Shown piece by piece: positions 1-7,387 of a stretch of DNA of 7,387 nt (positions are counted from its first letter, which is position 1; the number at the start of each line of letters is the position of its first letter). Position numbers and translations under genes: made by a program. Below the pieces are notes generated by a model. That model saw nothing but the letters and a program-made list of their open reading frames with translations, was not told where the DNA came from and ran no database searches. The DNA comes from Bacteroidota bacterium (GTDB lineage Bacteria > Bacteroidota > Rhodothermia > Rhodothermales > Rubricoccaceae), in NCBI GenBank assembly GCA_022564455.1, contig JADFLK010000102.1, positions 1-7,387 of the forward strand, in the 5' to 3' direction.

Positions 1-431
1 AGCAGACGAAGTCGCTGGAAAAAGAACTGGCCTCGTTCAAGCAGCAAGCTGCATCGGCCGGGCTCGACCAACTCATAGCCGCCGCGCAGGACGTAGACGG
101 AATCCGCCTCATCACCGGCGAAATCCCCGGCGCGGACATGAAAACCCTCAGCGACCTTGGTGAGCAGATCCGCGAGCAACTCAAAGAAAACACCGTGGCC
201 GTCCTGGGCAGCGCGGACTTCGATGCCGGCAAAGCCTTCCTCGTGGCTTCCGTGACCGATGACCTGGTAAAAGAGGGCATTCAGGCAGGCAAGCTCGTCG
301 GCGCTCTGGCTAAGAAAATCGGCGGAGGCGGAGGCGGCCGCCCGCACCTTGCCACGGCGGGTGGTAAACAACCGGAGAAGCTGGGTGAAGCGTTGGGAGC
401 AGTGGCCGAAGAACTGCAAGCACTTCGGTAG
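1..431 (+). CDS. alaS: Alanyl-tRNA synthetase, C-terminal end (partial, cut by left edge)
   Basis: AlaRS charges tRNA-Ala with alanine in the cytoplasm. Only the last 142 residues are present; the reading frame enters at base 3 and stops with TAG at 429-431. A short coiled-coil-like start (SLEKELASFKQQ) leads into the C-terminal DHHA1-type domain. The glycine run followed by RP and ATAGGK near the end (about bases 324-374) is the recognisable family signature, normally written GGGGGGRPxxAxAGG. The catalytic, tRNA-recognition and editing domains lie outside the window. The internal ATG at 138 is not a gene start, because homology continues upstream of it in the same frame. The next gene is 162 bases downstream and unrelated. 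Family assignment is confident from the glycine signature plus the preceding GKAFLVASVTDDLV segment. Confidence 0.93.
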   Translation, partial: QTKSLEKELASFKQQAASAGLDQLIAAAQDVDGIRLITGEIPGADMKTLSDLGEQIREQLKENTVAVLGSADFDAGKAFLVASVTDDLVKEGIQAGKLVGALAKKIGGGGGGRPHLATAGGKQPEKLGEALGAVAEELQALR

Positions 432-455
432 AGACGTGGCACGCAACGTCTCTGC
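428..455 (+). terminator. Hairpin over the alaS stop codon, possible terminator
   Basis: Bases 428-437 pair with 446-455 in a 10-bp stem containing one G-T wobble, with an 8-base loop; the stem includes the TAG stop. A second, mutually exclusive 6-bp pairing exists (443-448, gcaacg, with 457-462, cgttgc). The sequence after it is only mildly T-rich (470-481, ttacgttttgtt) rather than a clean U-tract. It is therefore a plausible 3'-end structure for alaS mRNA, but a weak intrinsic terminator. Confidence 0.4.
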
Positions 456-508
456 GCGTTGCACGCCTGTTACGTTTTGTTCAAACTGCTCAGGACAGTG
501 GTTGCGAA

Positions 509-537
509 TTGGGAGTCGCGCCATCGGACTGTATTTT
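509..537 (+). promoter_or_regulatory. Weak candidate promoter for the metallopeptidase gene
   Basis: TTGGGA (509-514) and TATTTT (532-537) are separated by 17 bases, each matching the sigma-70 consensus at 4 of 6 positions. The same TATTTT region also partly resembles the Bacteroidota TAnnTTTG -7 box, with a TTG about 20 bases upstream. It lies about 57 bases ahead of the chosen ATG at 594. The fit is modest and could be chance. Confidence 0.22.
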
Positions 538-593
538 CAAGGCAGGCCGCACGATGCGCGGCATTCGGATACACAAAACCAACCTGGGTCATC

Positions 594-2876
594 ATGAACT
601 TCCGTTTCCCTTTCGCAATAGCCCTTGCCCTTGTTGCAACATCAGCGTGGGCGCAAAAGCCCGCTGAGCGTTCGCCGCTTGAGATCGGCGAGGACTACGT
701 CGAGTCGATTTCACAGATTGGCCCGAATACGTTTATCAGTGATGTTGACGGCACGCCACGTGCGCTCTCCCAAGTCAATTATTCCGTCAGGCCGGACTCA
801 CCCCAGGCGATGGCCGAGCAGTATCTGAGTGATCACGCACCCGCACTTCGTATTAGCTCCTTGTCGGATCTGGAATACCGGTCAACCCGGAGTGGGTTGG
901 CAGGCCACAATGTGCGATTCAGGCAGACTGTGGACGGCGTTCCGGTTTGGGTGCCCGAAACGGTTATCAACATCGATAATCAGAATCGCGTGCAGTTCGT
1001 ACTGAACGAGTTTCGTTCCGATGTTTCGGTGCCGAGCGTGATACCTGTCGTGGGTGCTTCCGCAGCCCGTCAGGCAGCATTCGATCACCTGGGTGTTTCC
1101 GGGGATCTTTTCACCGATGAAACCACGCTTATCGTTTACCCAACGCAAGACGAAGCGCTACTGGCGTGGAGTATTCGGGTGGTGCCCGGCTCGCCGATTG
1201 GCGACTGGGAAGCCATCATCGACGCTACCACGGGGGAGTTCATTCGCGTGAAGGATCATACGGTCTATCACCGGGGTGACGATAAGGGTGACAACAAGAA
1301 GGACGGCGAAGATCCTCCTGCGATGATTCCGACAGCCGAATCGCACCGCACAAATTCGCGTGTCGACGGTACGGGCTGGATCTTCGATCCTGACCCGCTC
1401 ACGCGCGCCGGAGCAACCTATGGCGACCCCGGTTATGTTGATAACAACGACGCCGATTCGCCTGAGCTGACTGCCGCGCGCTCGATGGTGACGTTGCCGG
1501 ACATCACATTCGATGGAGTGGATTATCACTTGGACGGGTTGTACGCGGTCATTGCAGACTTCGAGTCTCCTTTTTTCGGATTGTTTGAGCAGCCTTCGGA
1601 TACGTGGGATTTCACGCGGTCCGCTTCTGCATTCGAGGCTGTTAACGTCTTTTGGCAGCTTGACAATTACATGCGGTATATAACCGAAACGCTTGGTATT
1701 CCGTTGACACCGCGCCAGTATCCGGGAGGTGTCCAGTTCGATCCACACGGCCTGAACGGTGCGGATAACTCGCACTATACAGGAGGCCGCGTTGCCTTTG
1801 GGGAAGGGTGCGTGGATGATTCTGAAGACGCGGATGTCATCATTCACGAACTGGGCCACGGCATACACGATTGGATTGCTGGTGGTGTATCCAATTCGGA
1901 TGGCTTGAGCGAGGGTATTGGTGACTACGTTGCTGTTTCGTACACGCGTAGCCTCGGGTTGCTTACACCGGCAGACCCGGAATACAACTGGGTGTTCAAG
2001 TGGGACGGCCACAACCCCTGTTGGCCCGGCCGGATTACCAACTATTCCGCTACGTACCCAACGGGCAGTGCGCCGCATCAGCGCGGGCAACACTGGTCCA
2101 CTTCAAACTTGAAAATCTGGGACGATCTTGGTCGGGAGCCCACCGACACAGCCATGTTTGAGGGCCTGGCAATGACCAACAGCAGCACGTCTCAGCCGGT
2201 GGCTGCGCAAGCGGTCTTGCAAGCGGCGTTCAACATGGGTTACTCGGACGCAGATGTGACGACGATGCATACGCACTACGTAACTCAAGGCTACGACGTC
2301 ACGAATCCGGTCCCCGTAGAATTGCTTTCCTTTGACGCCGTGATCGAAGAAGGGGATGTTCATCTTCAATGGGCGACGGCCTCAGAGACAAATAATGCCG
2401 GCTTCGAAGTGCAGATGGCCCGGGCTGGTGACGATTGGAGAGTGCTAGGGTTTGTGGATGGCCATGGAACCACCACAGAAGCTCAACTCTACCGGTATAC
2501 CGCTACAAACCTTATTTCCGGTGTGCGGTATTCCTTCCGTCTTAAGCAGATCGATTTTGACGGAGCCTTTGAGTACAGCCATGAAATCGAGGTGGATCTC
2601 GGGATTCCGGGGACGCACACGCTGAGTGCAGCTTATCCAAACCCGTTTAATCCCACGTCAACATTTACGTTCTTTGTTGCGCGAGAGCAATACGTGACTG
2701 TGGCTCTGTTTGACGCGGTTGGACGCCAGGTGCAGACGATTTACACGGGCCCGATGAGAGCAGGCGAGAGCCGTGAGTTCGTCATTGACGCACAGGGTTT
2801 GGCCAGCGGGTATTACGTCTACCGCGCCATCGGCGACGGCTTTTCAGCCTCAAGGAGCATTGTGTTAGCGAAGTAG
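594..2876 (+). CDS. Secreted FTP/PepSY zinc metallopeptidase (M36/M4-like) with C-terminal type IX sorting domain
   Basis: A 760-residue exported protease. The open frame extends upstream to 459, but ATG 594 is chosen because a signal peptide begins there: hydrophobic residues 5-18, with probable cleavage after AWA (A20). Residues ~72-137 resemble the FTP propeptide and ~150-219 a PepSY-like segment, both typical chaperone/inhibitor parts of thermolysin- and fungalysin-type zymogens. A charged linker (~221-254) precedes the catalytic domain (~255-565). This carries HELGH (H418, E419, H422) and, 22 residues after H418, E440 in GLSEGIGDY, the likely third zinc ligand as in gluzincins. H495 in HQRGQHWS may correspond to the transition-state histidine. 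Residues ~573-665 are an all-beta domain starting VPVELLSF. Residues ~675-760 form a sorting domain with YPNPFNP (681-687), expected to direct export and surface attachment through type IX secretion. Only two cysteines are seen in the mature protein (C406, C476). The gene appears monocistronic. M36 versus M4 assignment is uncertain; a secreted metallopeptidase is not. Confidence 0.88.
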   Translation: MNFRFPFAIALALVATSAWAQKPAERSPLEIGEDYVESISQIGPNTFISDVDGTPRALSQVNYSVRPDSPQAMAEQYLSDHAPALRISSLSDLEYRSTRSGLAGHNVRFRQTVDGVPVWVPETVINIDNQNRVQFVLNEFRSDVSVPSVIPVVGASAARQAAFDHLGVSGDLFTDETTLIVYPTQDEALLAWSIRVVPGSPIGDWEAIIDATTGEFIRVKDHTVYHRGDDKGDNKKDGEDPPAMIPTAESHRTNSRVDGTGWIFDPDPLTRAGATYGDPGYVDNNDADSPELTAARSMVTLPDITFDGVDYHLDGLYAVIADFESPFFGLFEQPSDTWDFTRSASAFEAVNVFWQLDNYMRYITETLGIPLTPRQYPGGVQFDPHGLNGADNSHYTGGRVAFGEGCVDDSEDADVIIHELGHGIHDWIAGGVSNSDGLSEGIGDYVAVSYTRSLGLLTPADPEYNWVFKWDGHNPCWPGRITNYSATYPTGSAPHQRGQHWSTSNLKIWDDLGREPTDTAMFEGLAMTNSSTSQPVAAQAVLQAAFNMGYSDADVTTMHTHYVTQGYDVTNPVPVELLSFDAVIEEGDVHLQWATASETNNAGFEVQMARAGDDWRVLGFVDGHGTTTEAQLYRYTATNLISGVRYSFRLKQIDFDGAFEYSHEIEVDLGIPGTHTLSAAYPNPFNPTSTFTFFVAREQYVTVALFDAVGRQVQTIYTGPMRAGESREFVIDAQGLASGYYVYRAIGDGFSASRSIVLAK

Positions 2877-2900
2877 TTCGCCGTGCATTACAGACCATCC

Positions 2901-2938
2901 AGGAGGGCGTGGGCTTCGGCTCGCGCCCTCTTCCTGTT
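2901..2938 (+). terminator. UUCG-capped hairpin, probable terminator of the metallopeptidase gene
   Basis: Bases 2901-2914 pair with 2919-2932 around a TTCG tetraloop closed by C-G, a very stable arrangement. The core gagggcg/cgccctc (2903-2909 with 2924-2930) is perfect, and the remainder has three G-T wobbles. It is followed by ttcctgtt, only a moderate T-tract. It starts 24 bases after the peptidase stop codon. It also sits only 14 bases before the annotated start of the next gene. Confidence 0.62.
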
Positions 2939-2946
2939 GAAATCGC

Positions 2947-3792
2947 ATGCGGTGGGCCGCTACCTTGCCGTACTCCACCGCTACCGATAGCACACGACCC
3001 GTGGCCGCAGCCTCCAACAACCGCTCCATCTACGATTACCTCCTCGCTACCAAGAGCGAGAAAGGCGCTGGCTTTATCGTGTTGGTCGACCCCGACAAGC
3101 TGCCCGAACGCGATGCGCCGGAGTTCACGGAGCGTTGTACCGCCGCCGGCGTAGACGCATTCTTCATCGGCGGTAGTCTCATGCACTCCGGCGAACTGGA
3201 TCGCTACGTGGGCCGCATGAAATTGACGACCGACCGCCCCATCATCGGATTCCCCGGATCGGTGAGCCAGTTAGCCTCCGCGTACGATGCCGTGTTGTTC
3301 CTCTCGGTTATGAGTGGACGCAATCCCGAGCTTCTCATCGGCCAGCACGTCCACGCCGCGCCCATGATCAAACGCTTCGGTATGGAGCCCATCCCTACGG
3401 CCTATCTGCTCATTGAAAGCGGGCGGATGACGACGGCGCAGTACATGAGCGGCTCGGCGCCCATCCCACGTCACAAACCCGAAATCGCCGCGACAACGGC
3501 TCTTGCGGCAGAGATGCTGGGGATGAAGCTCATCTTCACGGATGGCGGCTCGGGGGCGGAGCATCCGGTTTCGCAGGAGATGATCGCGGCCATCACGCAG
3601 ACAGTCGAGATTCCGCTGGTCGTCGGTGGCGGAATTCGAACGCCGGAGGCCGTCGCGAGCCGGGTAGAGGCCGGCGCGAGTTTCATTGTTGTTGGCCACG
3701 CCATTGAGAACCGCGCCGACGACGGATCCTATGTCGCGGAATTAGCCGAAGCAGCTCATCCGGCGGTGGTGCAGCCGATGGCGAGGGGTTAA
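2947..3792 (+). CDS. Geranylgeranylglyceryl phosphate synthase (GGGPS/HepGP synthase family)
   Basis: A TIM-barrel prenyltransferase that joins a long isoprenyl diphosphate to sn-glycerol-1-phosphate, making the ether bond known from archaeal lipids; bacterial homologues occur in Bacteroidota and Firmicutes. The family motifs appear in order: VDPDK (D48, D50), GGS at 75-77, the FPGS segment, YLLIESG, DGGSGA at 199-204, VGGGIRTPE from V226, and GHAIE at 250-254. The glycine motifs in the C-terminal half form the phosphate-binding site. At 281 residues it is somewhat longer than typical members because of about 25 extra residues before the conserved start IYDYLL. ATG 2947 is the first start after an in-frame TGA at 2938-2940. 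GTG 3001 is an alternative giving a more usual N-terminus, and no good Shine-Dalgarno sequence marks either. Product chain length (geranylgeranyl versus heptaprenyl) cannot be read from the sequence; the FCB-type context favours geranylgeranyl. Confidence 0.9.
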   Translation: MRWAATLPYSTATDSTRPVAAASNNRSIYDYLLATKSEKGAGFIVLVDPDKLPERDAPEFTERCTAAGVDAFFIGGSLMHSGELDRYVGRMKLTTDRPIIGFPGSVSQLASAYDAVLFLSVMSGRNPELLIGQHVHAAPMIKRFGMEPIPTAYLLIESGRMTTAQYMSGSAPIPRHKPEIAATTALAAEMLGMKLIFTDGGSGAEHPVSQEMIAAITQTVEIPLVVGGGIRTPEAVASRVEAGASFIVVGHAIENRADDGSYVAELAEAAHPAVVQPMARG

Positions 3793-3960
3793 TGGCTGAA
3801 GGGAGAAGAGAGAAGGGTGAAATCAAGTTGTAGCATCCACTTCAACCCTCCCATCTCCTTGTACTCTCATTGCCCACCCTCTCAACCTCCGTCCCCCTCA
3901 CCCAATTCCGCGTCGCCTCACAGAACCGCTGCCCGGCGATTCGTAGCTTCTCGCCCGCCC

Positions 3961-4048
<88 letters not shown>

Positions 4049-4050
4049 CA

Positions 4051-4158
4051 ATGAAGAAGGCTGCACGTAGTGCGACAACCAAATCGGGGCAGTCACGAGC
4101 TCGCTCGGATGGCTGTCCCAATTTGGTTGTGGGGACGATAGTCCACAGCCTTCTTCAT
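4051..4158. repeat. 108-bp inverted-repeat element with four-way-junction fold (MITE-like)
   Basis: The ends are a perfect 13-bp inverted repeat (4051-4063 atgaagaaggctg with 4146-4158). Inside are two small side hairpins, gcac-gta-gtgc (4063-4073) and ggac-gata-gtcc (4133-4144). They flank a long central arm in which 4075-4095 pairs with 4110-4130, with a mismatch at C4085/A4120 and two wobbles, capped by cgag-ctcg-ctcg (4096-4107). The element is flanked on both sides by CGCA (4047-4050 and 4159-4162), which could be a 4-bp target-site duplication. It abuts the tRNA-Ser 3' end. It contains no transposase, so it would be non-autonomous if mobile. A structured RNA is the main alternative. Confidence 0.6.
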
Positions 4159-4159
4159 C

Positions 4160-4240
4160 GCAGGATCTCCCAAACGGGATGGGCGGAGCCAATCCCAACC
4201 TTTGAGGATGAGAGAATGGGGGTTTGAGAAGGTGAGGGGT
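4160..4240. repeat. Direct repeat, copy 1 (~81 bp)
   Basis: Bases 4168-4236 are identical over 69 positions to 4320-4388. The match extends left to gcagga with a one-base indel and right to 4240 with one mismatch. Each unit contains gggat...atccc (4176-4180 with 4192-4196) and a longer-range caaac/gtttg pairing (4171-4175 with 4222-4226), so it can fold. It begins immediately after the inverted-repeat element. The near-perfect identity of non-coding copies suggests recent duplication or a dispersed repeat family. Confidence 0.85.
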
Positions 4241-4310
4241 TGTGATGGCTTGCTCAAAGAACCTCTCCGATCATTTTCAATGACGGGCATCACCCGTGCC
4301 ATCCGTGGTT

Positions 4311-4392
4311 GCAGGAATTTCCCAAACGGGATGGGCGGAGCCAATCCCAACCTTTGAGGATGAGAGAATGGGGGTTTGAGAAGGTGAGAGGT
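4311..4392. repeat. Direct repeat, copy 2 (~82 bp)
   Basis: Second copy of the unit at 4160-4240, offset by 152 bases in the core, identical at 4320-4388. Differences lie at the edges: the left junction reads gcaggaatt instead of gcaggatc, and A4389 replaces G. The spacer between copies (4241-4310) is unique in this window. This copy has no adjacent inverted-repeat element, so the two repeat types are separable. Confidence 0.85.
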
Positions 4393-4396
4393 AGGG

Positions 4397-4446
4397 GGTG
4401 GTCGCCGAGCCCAATGTCTTCTGTACTCGGCTCTCTTCACTCCACC
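4397..4446 (+). other. Long imperfect hairpin in the etfB upstream region
   Basis: ggtgg (4397-4401) can pair with ccacc (4442-4446), and gccgag (4404-4409) with ctcggc (4426-4431), with asymmetric internal bulging and a 16-base loop. No T-tract follows on the + strand, so it is not an obvious terminator. It may be a leader structure of the etf operon or the tail of the repeat region. Confidence 0.3.
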
Positions 4447-4466
4447 TAAAAACCGGCGCACGGGTT

Positions 4467-4495
4467 AACTTGCCCTGCCTCAAAAACAGCAAGTT
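4467..4495 (+). promoter_or_regulatory. Inverted repeat just upstream of the etfB start
   Basis: aacttgc (4467-4473) and gcaagtt (4489-4495) form a perfect 7-bp inverted repeat with a 15-base spacer, ending 6 bases before the ATG at 4502. It covers where a ribosome-binding site would lie, and no Shine-Dalgarno sequence is seen. It could be a repressor operator or an mRNA hairpin that affects initiation. A 7-bp match alone is modest evidence. Confidence 0.32.
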
Positions 4496-4501
4496 CAGTA
4501 G

Positions 4502-5242
4502 ATGAAATTCTGCGTCTGCATCAAGCAGGTTCCCGACGTTACCGCGCCCATCCAGATCCGAGATGGGGAGCTGTCGATGGACGCAGGCCGCGTGATTCTG
4601 AATGCTTACGATGCCTCCGCCGTGGAGGAGGCGCTGGTCCTTACCGCCGATAACGGTGGAGAGGTGGATGTTGTCCTTATTGGTCCCGAAAAGGCGACGG
4701 AGACCATCCGCAAAGCCCTTGCAATGGGTGCAGACCGAGGTGCACATCTGGTCATCCCGGAGGGCGCCGAACTCGATTCTGCGGCTGTTTCACAGCTTCT
4801 AGCTGATCACTTTAAGGGCCACATCTACGATGTCATCCTGACCGGCAAGCAGGCCCAGGACACCGACGCCGGGCTGGCGGGCGGGATGCTGGCTGAGCGC
4901 CTCGGACTCCCGTATGCCACCAACGCAGTCGGACTCGCCGTTGAGGGCGGCCAACTTGTCGTAACTCGCCAGGGCGACACAGGGCAGGAGATCATCGCGC
5001 TGCCAACACCGTGCCTCGTCACGTGCTCGAACGACATGAACAACCCCCGCATCTCCAACCTGAAGGGCGTGATGGGTGCGAAGAAAAAACCTGTTGATTC
5101 CAACCCTGTCGCGGCGATTCCTGAAGCTTCTGTTCGCGTCCTTGGCTACGAGCCGCTGCCCACGCGCGAGGCCGGACGCTTCATTGAAGGTGAGCCCGAG
5201 GAGCAAGTCGCCGAGTTGGTTAATGTCCTGGAATTATCGTAG
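4502..5242 (+). CDS. etfB: Electron transfer flavoprotein subunit beta
   Basis: Small subunit of the EtfAB heterodimer, a soluble carrier that takes electrons from acyl-CoA and related flavin dehydrogenases. The 246 residues are close to the usual length of about 250. The start MKFCVCIKQVPD is the standard EtfB N-terminus. The motif GKQAQDTDAG (115-124), followed by GGMLAERLGLP, matches the conserved GxQAxDxDxGxxGxxLAexLGxP block. NNPRISNLKGVMGAKKK (180-196) is the nucleotide-binding loop and recognition segment. No clear ribosome-binding site is seen. First gene of an operon with etfA (46 bases on) and fixC. In FixABCX-type systems the equivalent gene is called fixA, and the adjacent FixC homologue makes that an alternative name. 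Whether this ETF bifurcates electrons depends on residues that cannot be judged here without alignment. Confidence 0.95.
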   Translation: MKFCVCIKQVPDVTAPIQIRDGELSMDAGRVILNAYDASAVEEALVLTADNGGEVDVVLIGPEKATETIRKALAMGADRGAHLVIPEGAELDSAAVSQLLADHFKGHIYDVILTGKQAQDTDAGLAGGMLAERLGLPYATNAVGLAVEGGQLVVTRQGDTGQEIIALPTPCLVTCSNDMNNPRISNLKGVMGAKKKPVDSNPVAAIPEASVRVLGYEPLPTREAGRFIEGEPEEQVAELVNVLELS

Positions 5243-5288
5243 GGGCGAGAACCATCGCGCCCACTATGGTTTCACCCTTCTCTGAAAC

Positions 5289-6272
5289 ATGTCCACAATT
5301 CTCGCCTACGTCGCCGTACAGAATGGAAGCCCGAGCCGTGCTTCGTTGGAGGTTCTGACCCGCGTCCGGCAGATCGCGGAAGGGCTGGATGCCACATGTG
5401 CCGCCGTCGTGCTGTCTCCGGATGCTTCGGCTGTCGTTGATGCACTCGCCCGCTACGGTGCGCAGAAGGTCTACGCCGTCAGCGATCCGATTTTTGCGCG
5501 GCACATCAATACGCCGGTTTTGGCAGGATTGGAGGCTGTGATAACGCAGGCCCAGCCGTCGATGGTGGTCTTTCCGTCGTCGGAGGGCGTGAAGGATGTA
5601 CTCGGAGCACTCGCGGTACGGACAGGTGCCGCCGTGTTGCCCGACGTGGCTTCGTTTGAAGTGAAGGACGGTGGCGTCGAGGCGCTTCGCCCGGTGATGG
5701 CGGCCAAGTTCATGGCCCGCGCCCGCGCCGAAGGCAGCCTCGTGTTCGTTTCGGTTCGTGCCGGTTCGTACGAGGCCGTCGAGGCGCCCACGGAAGCGGC
5801 GGTCGAGGACGTCCCCTTTTCGTTTGATGAAACTACCCTGCGCCAGACGCTTCGGGAGGTCGTGGGATCAACGGCGGGCGCAGTAGATCTTGCGGATGCG
5901 CAGATCGTTATTGCCGCGGGTCGTGGGGTAAAAGACGAGGCCGGCAAGCAGCTTGTGGAGGAGTTGGCCGATGTACTCGGCGCGGCAATCGGCTCGTCGC
6001 GGGCGGTCGTGGAATCGGGGATGTTCCCGGCGACGGCGCAGATCGGGCAGACGGGCAAAGTGGTCTCGCCGGATTTGTACATCGGCGTCGGAATCTCGGG
6101 CGCGATCCAACACGTCGCGGGGATGTCGAACAGCCGCGTCATCGTCGCCATCAACACCAACCCCGACGCGCCCATCTTCGACGTGGCCACATACGGCATC
6201 GTGGGCGATCTTTACAAGGTGCTGCCGATTCTGATTGAGGAAATCAAGAAAGCCAAGGCCACAACCGCGTAG
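5289..6272 (+). CDS. etfA: Electron transfer flavoprotein subunit alpha
   Basis: Large, FAD-binding subunit that pairs with EtfB. The 327 residues match the family. The N-terminal half is the divergent alpha/beta domain. The C-terminal half holds the conserved FAD domain: GRGVKDEAG from G211, GQTGKVVSPDLY from G253, GVGISGAIQH (266-275), NTNPDAPIF from N289, and YGIVGDL ending near 308. These are the EtfA signature segments that wrap the flavin. ATG 5289 is chosen because MSTILAYV begins the usual first beta strand. The 46-base gap after etfB has no clear Shine-Dalgarno sequence but contains a small GC inverted repeat (gggcg...cgccc). Translation in an operon with etfB and the downstream flavoprotein is likely. 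The FixB name applies if this is a Fix-type system. Long open frames on the opposite strand here are shadows of GC-rich coding DNA. Confidence 0.95.
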   Translation: MSTILAYVAVQNGSPSRASLEVLTRVRQIAEGLDATCAAVVLSPDASAVVDALARYGAQKVYAVSDPIFARHINTPVLAGLEAVITQAQPSMVVFPSSEGVKDVLGALAVRTGAAVLPDVASFEVKDGGVEALRPVMAAKFMARARAEGSLVFVSVRAGSYEAVEAPTEAAVEDVPFSFDETTLRQTLREVVGSTAGAVDLADAQIVIAAGRGVKDEAGKQLVEELADVLGAAIGSSRAVVESGMFPATAQIGQTGKVVSPDLYIGVGISGAIQHVAGMSNSRVIVAINTNPDAPIFDVATYGIVGDLYKVLPILIEEIKKAKATTA

Positions 6273-6302
6273 GGGTGGATCACGAATCGCCCGGATACAC
6301 AG

Positions 6303-7277
6303 ATGGACGACAAGCTCGACTGCATTATCGTAGGGGGAGGCATCGCCGGGCTGGCGGCGGCGATGACGCTGGCGCGTGCAGACGCGCGGTTTCTCCTCAT
6401 CGAACGGGGCGAATGGAGCGGCGCGAAGAACGTCTCCGGTGGTGTGCTGTGGGGAACGGATCTGAACCGGCTCGTTCCCAATTATTGGGAGGAGGAGGAC
6501 GCGGGCTTCGAGCGGTTCGTGAACCATCGGCGGCTCACGTTCATGGACGAAGGCGCAGCGTTCACGCTCGATTTCAAATCCGACCACTTTAACCAGACGC
6601 CCTATACGGGCCTCACAGTCCTGCGCTCGCGTTTTGATGCATGGCTCGCGGGCAAGGTGCAGGAGGCCATCGACCAGAGCACGCAGGCCGAAGAGTCCTT
6701 CCTTGCCACCGACATTTTAGTCGAGGAAGTCTTGATGGAGGACGGCAGGGCCGTGGGTATCCGGGCTGGAGAGGAGACCTTTCACGCCGATTGCGTGATC
6801 CTCGCCGAGGGCGTCAACAATCTGCTCACGCGGCAGGTTGGCCTGCAGACCGAGTACGTCCCGGCCGACGGCCTCGCGGTGGGCGTCAAGGAAGTCATCC
6901 AGTTCGACCAGAAGGTGCTGGAAGATCGCTTTCAACTTTCTGAGAACAGCGGCCTCACCAACGAGTTCGTCGGTTACGCCTCGGGCGGGGTGGAGGGCGG
7001 CGGATTCCTCTACACCAATCGAGATACGCTCTCCGTGGGTCTCGTGCTCGGCATCGCCGACCTCCGCGACAAAAAGCTCAAGCCCTACGATCTCCTCAAC
7101 GAGTTCAAGCAGCACCCCGCCATCGCCGACCAACTGCGGGGTGGCGAGGTGCTGGAGTACAACGCCAAAGTGGTCTCCACCGGCGACATGTCCATCATGC
7201 CCAAGGAGATCTACACCGACGGCCTGGGCTACAGCCGGGAGGACCTGGAATGCCTGAAACAACTGGACGTTATCTGA
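6303..7277 (+). CDS. fixC: FixC/ETF-quinone oxidoreductase-like flavoprotein, C-terminally truncated with a foreign tail
   Basis: The intact family passes electrons from ETF to the quinone pool at the membrane. The N-terminus has a Rossmann FAD site, DCIIVGGGIAGLAAA (G11, G13, G16), with E34 at the end of the second strand, then the family-typical GAKNVSGGVLWG (40-49). Further matches are the PYTGLTVLRSRFDAWLA and GFLYTNRDTLSVGLVLG segments. FixC-type similarity runs to about IYTDGL (303-308). Family members then continue with a LxxGDAAG FAD motif and about 100 more residues; here the protein instead ends GYSREDLECLKQLDVI at 324. That ending resembles the C-terminus of CaiB/BaiF CoA-transferases. 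Loss of the GDAAG motif and C-terminal quinone/membrane part predicts an inactive product, so this may be a pseudogene or an assembly join. No fixX ferredoxin gene follows. It starts 30 bases after etfA. The fixC versus ETF-QO label rests on overall resemblance. Confidence 0.85.
   Translation: MDDKLDCIIVGGGIAGLAAAMTLARADARFLLIERGEWSGAKNVSGGVLWGTDLNRLVPNYWEEEDAGFERFVNHRRLTFMDEGAAFTLDFKSDHFNQTPYTGLTVLRSRFDAWLAGKVQEAIDQSTQAEESFLATDILVEEVLMEDGRAVGIRAGEETFHADCVILAEGVNNLLTRQVGLQTEYVPADGLAVGVKEVIQFDQKVLEDRFQLSENSGLTNEFVGYASGGVEGGGFLYTNRDTLSVGLVLGIADLRDKKLKPYDLLNEFKQHPAIADQLRGGEVLEYNAKVVSTGDMSIMPKEIYTDGLGYSREDLECLKQLDVI
7224..7277 (+). other. Apparent CaiB/BaiF C-terminal remnant fused to fixC
   Basis: The last 17 codons read LGYSREDLECLKQLDVI then stop. 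CaiB/BaiF CoA-transferases commonly end in a pattern LGYSxEEIxxLxxxGVI, which this matches closely, while no FixC protein ends this way to my knowledge. The junction lies within ggcctggg at about 7221-7228, where both parents could share a few bases. A CaiB/BaiF gene starts 46 bases after the stop, consistent with this remnant being the end of a first, deleted gene in a tandem pair. Confidence 0.6.
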
Positions 7278-7318
7278 GCAGGGCAGCGGGCAGGGCAGCG
7301 GGCAGGGCAGCGGGCAGG
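7278..7318. repeat. 12-bp tandem repeat, three copies plus a partial
   Basis: The unit gcagggcagcgg occurs exactly three times (7278-7289, 7290-7301, 7302-7313), followed by gcagg. It begins immediately after the fixC stop codon and ends 5 bases before the ATG of the next gene, filling the intergenic space. Copy number could vary by slippage. Confidence 0.93.
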
Positions 7319-7323
7319 CCGGA

Positions 7324-7387
7324 ATGACGTCCCTATTGCCCCTGAGCGGTATCCGAGTCCTGGACTCTACCTACGTTTTTGCCCTGC
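7324..7387 (+). CDS. CaiB/BaiF CoA-transferase family protein, N-terminal start (partial)
   Basis: The frame from ATG 7324 reads MTSLLPLSGIRVLDSTYVFAL and runs off the right edge. LPLxGIRVLDxT at the extreme N-terminus is the hallmark opening of class III (CaiB/BaiF) CoA-transferases, which move CoA between carboxylic acids. Only 21 residues are visible, so substrate and intactness are unknown. The start is preceded by a short ggccgga that could act as a weak ribosome-binding site. Its position behind an ETF operon suggests CoA-ester catabolism. Confidence 0.75.
   Translation, partial: MTSLLPLSGIRVLDSTYVFAL

What the first reader, a model, noticed from the sequence alone, without database searches (positions are those of the whole stretch)
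7200..7387. fixC truncated and fused in frame to the tail of a CaiB/BaiF CoA-transferase
FixC-like sequence stops at residue ~308, just before the GDAAG FAD motif, and the frame continues with GYSREDLECLKQLDVI, which looks like a CaiB/BaiF C-terminus. A CaiB/BaiF start follows 46 bases later. This implies a deletion that removed the fixC end, any fixX and most of a CaiB gene, or an assembly join. If real, the ETF has lost its usual quinone partner or has a remodelled one.
Basis: partly seen in the sequence, partly recalled or inferred. Interest (0 to 1): 0.72.

Follow-up and report, generated by a model that had tools for sequence, protein, structure and literature searches.

The report
Chimeric contig end: fixC joined to CaiB
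A gene for an electron-transfer enzyme seems to end in the tail of an unrelated enzyme, but the same gene is intact in other records and the join sits exactly where the two genes happen to look alike, so this is most likely a sequence-joining artefact rather than biology.

Summary
The 324-aa ORF at 6303-7277 is FixC up to residue 308, then runs in frame into 16 residues that are a CaiB/BaiF C-terminus; a CaiB-like start follows 46 nt after the stop. One database protein, P0123 (PF02515), ends in exactly GLGYSREDLECLKQLDVI. The deletion reading is not supported. Two database proteins identical to the window over residues 1-308 are 441 aa long with the normal FixC ending. In relatives the next gene is fixX (76 of 80 loci), and two CaiB queries found nothing in those 80. 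The two closest genomes have no match to the CaiB donor protein; one of them was also scanned with PF02515 and had none. The breakpoint lies in the only 7-residue stretch that the two proteins share at 6/7 or better, EIYTDGL / EIYVDGL. The best reading is a metagenomic chimera (assembly graph, or chimeric molecule or read) between a Rhodothermales/Balneolaceae-like contig and an unrelated CaiB gene pair. A real recombinant strain cannot be excluded without reads. Interest is low: not a real feature.

The parts
4502..5242 (+). etfB (246 aa)
   Evidence: PF01012, E 8.1e-35; collinear with L001, L106, L107
5289..6272 (+). etfA (327 aa)
   Evidence: PF00766 and PF01012; collinear with L001, L106, L107
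6303..7226 (+). fixC residues 1-308, genuine part of the Rhodothermales/Balneolaceae-like locus
   Evidence: 308 of 308 residues identical to P0002 and P0003; PF21162 at 192-290; DNA similarity to L001, L106, L107 ends at 7226
7206..7226 (+). Join zone: codons of EIYTDGL (residues 302-308), the stretch FixC shares with the CaiB donor family (EIYVDGL)
   Evidence: only ungapped 7-mer pair of P0003 and P0123 with at least 6 matches; 2 of 60 shuffles gave any
7227..7277 (+). Foreign tail: last 16 codons and stop of a CaiB/BaiF CoA-transferase
   Evidence: identical to the end of P0123
7278..7318 (+). Perfect 12-nt tandem repeat, 3.4 copies, between the CaiB tail and the next CaiB start
   Evidence: Tandem Repeats Finder, 100% matches, score 82
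7324..7387 (+). Start of a second CaiB/BaiF gene, cut by the window's end
   Evidence: aligns to the N-terminus of the CaiB part in 9 of 13 sequences

Best explanation
The last ~161 nt of the window are a chimeric end. Bases 1-7226 are a normal locus of a Rhodothermales/Balneolaceae-like bacterium (alaS end, secreted protease, pcrB, tRNA-Ser, etfB, etfA, fixC). The rest comes from an unrelated organism with two adjacent CaiB/BaiF genes. The two were joined at a coincidental similarity (EIYTDGL in FixC, EIYVDGL in the CaiB donor family), by an assembler crossing a short shared word or by a chimeric molecule or read. Shown: the composite structure, the intact copies, the normal neighbours in relatives, the similarity at the breakpoint. 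Inferred: that the join was made in vitro or in silico rather than in a cell.
For: P0002 and P0003 match 308 of 308 residues before the join and are intact at 441 aa. The tail is the end of a PF02515 protein, P0123. fixX follows fixC in 76 of 80 loci, and P0122/P0123 find no CaiB in them. G001, G003 and G004 have no P0123 match; G001 and G003 have no PF02515 match; of 7150-7387 only 7150-7226 matches G001. The breakpoint coincides with the only strong local similarity of the two proteins. L001 itself ends in 56 nt that depart from fixX, the same kind of contig end.
Against: No reads were available, and it was not verified that the contig ends at 7387. The join is in frame, although a join inside an in-frame shared peptide would be in frame anyway. 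The donor's DNA was not seen, so the shared run may be as short as about 9-10 nt, too short for a usual k-mer overlap (my estimate). Absence of CaiB in G001-G004 rests on fragmented genomes, and about half of wider relatives (50 of 99) have some CaiB-family match, all at 31% identity or less to P0123 in the listing.
Confidence: 0.91

Rival explanations
1. Real recombination in a minority strain: foreign CaiB DNA entered by horizontal transfer and joined at the EIYxDGL similarity, cutting fixC and separating or deleting fixX.
For: The join lies at a short similarity, as a microhomology event in a cell would too. Some wider relatives carry distant CaiB-family genes.
Against: Intact identical copies in other records; none of the 120 listed homologues has this ending; the junction 51-mer has no match in viral contigs, the one collection scanned for it.
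Confidence: 0.06
2. Deletion within one genome that originally had fixC, fixX, CaiB, CaiB in order.
For: The direction and frame of the pieces allow it.
Against: The normal order, seen in L002 and L106, is fixC, fixX, acyl-CoA dehydrogenase; no CaiB downstream of fixC was found in 80 loci; no P0123 match in G001 or G004.
Confidence: 0.02
3. A functional remodelled FixC with a new C-terminus.
For: Only that the ORF is open and in frame.
Against: Just 16 residues of CaiB are present, no CaiB domain; 133 residues of FixC are missing, including the GEAA motif; none of the 120 listed homologues shares the architecture.
Confidence: 0.01

Closest known systems
FixC / EtfC of EtfABCX (Thermotoga maritima, PDB 7KOE chain C)
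   Same: The intact homologue P0003 matches 7koe_C over residues 4-419 (E 9.3e-66), with etfB and etfA upstream and fixX downstream in relatives.
   Different: The window's copy stops at residue 308 and has no fixX in view.
CaiB/BaiF (PF02515) CoA-transferase
   Same: Last 18 residues identical to P0123; a CaiB-like start follows.
   Different: Only the last 16-18 residues are present, no catalytic part.
Chimeric contigs of metagenome assemblies
   Same: Sequence of two genomes joined through short shared sequence (passages of PMC7299287).
   Different: The causal step (assembler or library) was not shown here, and the shared run in the donor's DNA was not seen.

Membership tests
FixC/ETF-QO-like (EtfC) | N-terminal FAD-binding Rossmann motif and ETF-QO quinone-binding domain (PF21162) | tested here: met
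   FAD-family matches from residue 6 on, PF21162 at 192-290, 44.7 bits against cut-off 27.7
FixC/ETF-QO-like (EtfC) | C-terminal part with GEAA/GDAA motif completing the FAD site | tested here: not met
   missing after residue 308; present in 120 of 120 listed homologues
FixC/ETF-QO-like (EtfC) | fixX ferredoxin gene downstream | tested here: not met
   absent in the window, present after fixC in 76 of 80 relatives' loci
CaiB/BaiF CoA-transferase | CoA-transferase domain PF02515 | tested here: not met
   no PF02515 match in the 324-aa ORF; only the end of such a protein is present
Chimeric contig | The two sides come from different organisms | tested here: inconclusive
   no donor-like CaiB in G001, G003, G004; the donor organism of P0123 is unnamed
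Chimeric contig | Breakpoint at short shared sequence | tested here: met
Chimeric contig | No read support, or a coverage break, at the junction | not testable with these tools
   no reads are held

The most novel reading that the evidence does not exclude
A natural recombinant strain in which a microhomology join to foreign CaiB DNA truncated fixC and uncoupled the ETF from its quinone oxidoreductase.
Probability: 0.06. Interest if true: 0.3.

Novelty: not a real feature. Interest (0 to 1): 0.06.

Why it matters
Mainly as a caution: an in-frame fusion can arise from a chimeric contig end when two unrelated genes share a short peptide, and it can look like gene decay or remodelling. If real, it would be a strain with a broken ETF:quinone oxidoreductase.

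Tried and rejected
A search of the window's own genome was not possible. Viral contigs gave no relative of P0123, no match to the back-translated tail and none to the junction 51-mer. The PDB search with the tail gave only one chance hit, a sentrin-specific protease (E 1.7), and with the head nothing. A tblastn of P0123 in plasmids gave 1176 records, all under 60% identity, the top row 39.5% in Variovorax, so the donor taxon stays unknown. The tblastn of tail and head against the 80 loci gave chance-level rows only. The deletion model was rejected on the neighbours in relatives. No structure prediction was run, since a chimeric ORF would give no useful fold. Of the paper searches, searches were seen as listings, and one paper from each was then seen in passages; the search for template-switch chimeras returned listings off the subject and nothing is taken from it.

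Full report
What is there. The window holds, in order, the end of alaS (3-431), a secreted protease (594-2876; the FTP propeptide is above its Pfam cut-off, the M36 and Por_Secre_tail matches are below theirs), pcrB (2947-3792), tRNA-Ser (3961-4049), etfB (4502-5242), etfA (5289-6272) and a fixC-like ORF (6303-7277). The gene name alaS is my reading of a DHHA1 match. Titles include Rhodothermales, Rhodothermaceae, Balneolaceae and unspecified Bacteroidetes.

The join. FixC similarity ends at residue 308, nt 7226. The remaining 16 residues and the stop are a CaiB/BaiF C-terminus. P0123, a 381-aa PF02515 protein, ends EIYVDGLGYSREDLECLKQLDVI, against EIYTDGLGYSREDLECLKQLDVI in the window. That search had 3 candidates and 2 hits; the other hit, P0122, matches the CaiB body that I had put in front of the tail, and P0123's own E-value is 0.028. 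A CaiB-like start lies 46 nt after the stop; it aligns to the N-terminus of the CaiB part in 9 of 13 sequences.

Intact copies. Of 1831 hits (7998 candidates scored), 120 are listed. These 120 are 415-446 aa and none carries the CaiB tail; the other 1711 were not seen. P0002 and P0003 match 308 of 308 residues before the join and P0004 307 of 308; all three then continue MVAGEAANLVLNAGR. P0003 stands for 5 contigs, P0002 and P0004 for 1 each. So the same gene is intact in other records.

Neighbours. In 76 of 80 related loci fixX follows fixC. Three of the rest end within 65 nt of fixC; the fourth, L078, has 630 nt without a fixX match. Neither P0122 nor P0123 finds a CaiB in the 80 loci at E 1e-5. 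These 80 are the best of 100 confirmed loci. Of 40 relatives of G001 (G001 included), 22 have an orthologue of at least 65% identity; 21 of these reach residue 437 or beyond, and the one of G003 is cut at the end of its contig. In L002 and L106 an acyl-CoA dehydrogenase-like gene comes after fixX (my reading of the translation, no family search was run on it).

CaiB in relatives. G001 and G003 have no PF02515 match and G002 has one. P0123 finds nothing in G001, G003 or G004; 50 of 99 relatives have some match, at 31% identity or less in the listing. One of 395 genomes of the phylum passes 1e-45, at 33%. Of window 7150-7387, only 7150-7226 matches G001 and 7150-7222 G002, and nothing G003. G001-G004 are in many contigs and their completeness is not told, so absence is suggestive, not proof.

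Why the join is where it is. FixC 302-308 (EIYTDGL) and P0123 359-365 (EIYVDGL) are the only ungapped 7-mers of the two proteins with at least 6 matches; 2 of 60 shuffles of P0123 gave any such pair. The breakpoint lies exactly there, so the join was probably guided by sequence similarity. That fits an assembler crossing a shared word, a template switch, or a microhomology join in a cell.

Why an artefact is preferred. The foreign DNA is the last 161 nt of the window. I could not verify that the contig ends there. The near record L001 shows the same kind of end: its last 56 nt (9153-9208) depart from fixX after a run identical to L106. Passages of PMC7299287 describe chimeric contigs made when genomes share k-mers (passages seen, not the whole paper). 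Taken with the intact copies and normal neighbours, I put 0.91 on a chimera made in the library or the assembly, 0.06 on real recombination.

Function, if it were real. In T. maritima EtfABCX, EtfC holds the quinone-reducing FAD and EtfX the two [4Fe-4S] clusters that carry electrons to it (passages of PMC10734219). Losing 133 C-terminal residues, including the GEAA motif, would most likely break FixC (inference). No structure was modelled. Whether this ETF bifurcates was not tested.

Noticed in passing
L001:9153-9208: The last 56 nt of this related MAG contig depart from fixX after a run identical to L106, ending the fixX frame early: another possible chimeric contig end.
   Followed up: partly
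window 594-2876: A secreted protease gene between alaS and pcrB is present in the window and in G004 (L106) but missing at this place in L001.
   Followed up: partly
window 4165-4240 and 4317-4392: A 76-nt direct repeat, 97% identical, between tRNA-Ser and etfB.
   Followed up: no
window 7278-7318: Perfect 12-nt tandem repeat GCAGGGCAGCGG, 3.4 copies, in the presumed foreign part between the two CaiB genes.
   Followed up: no
P0123: This CaiB protein seems to lack the usual N-terminal residues, so its start may be called late.
   Followed up: no
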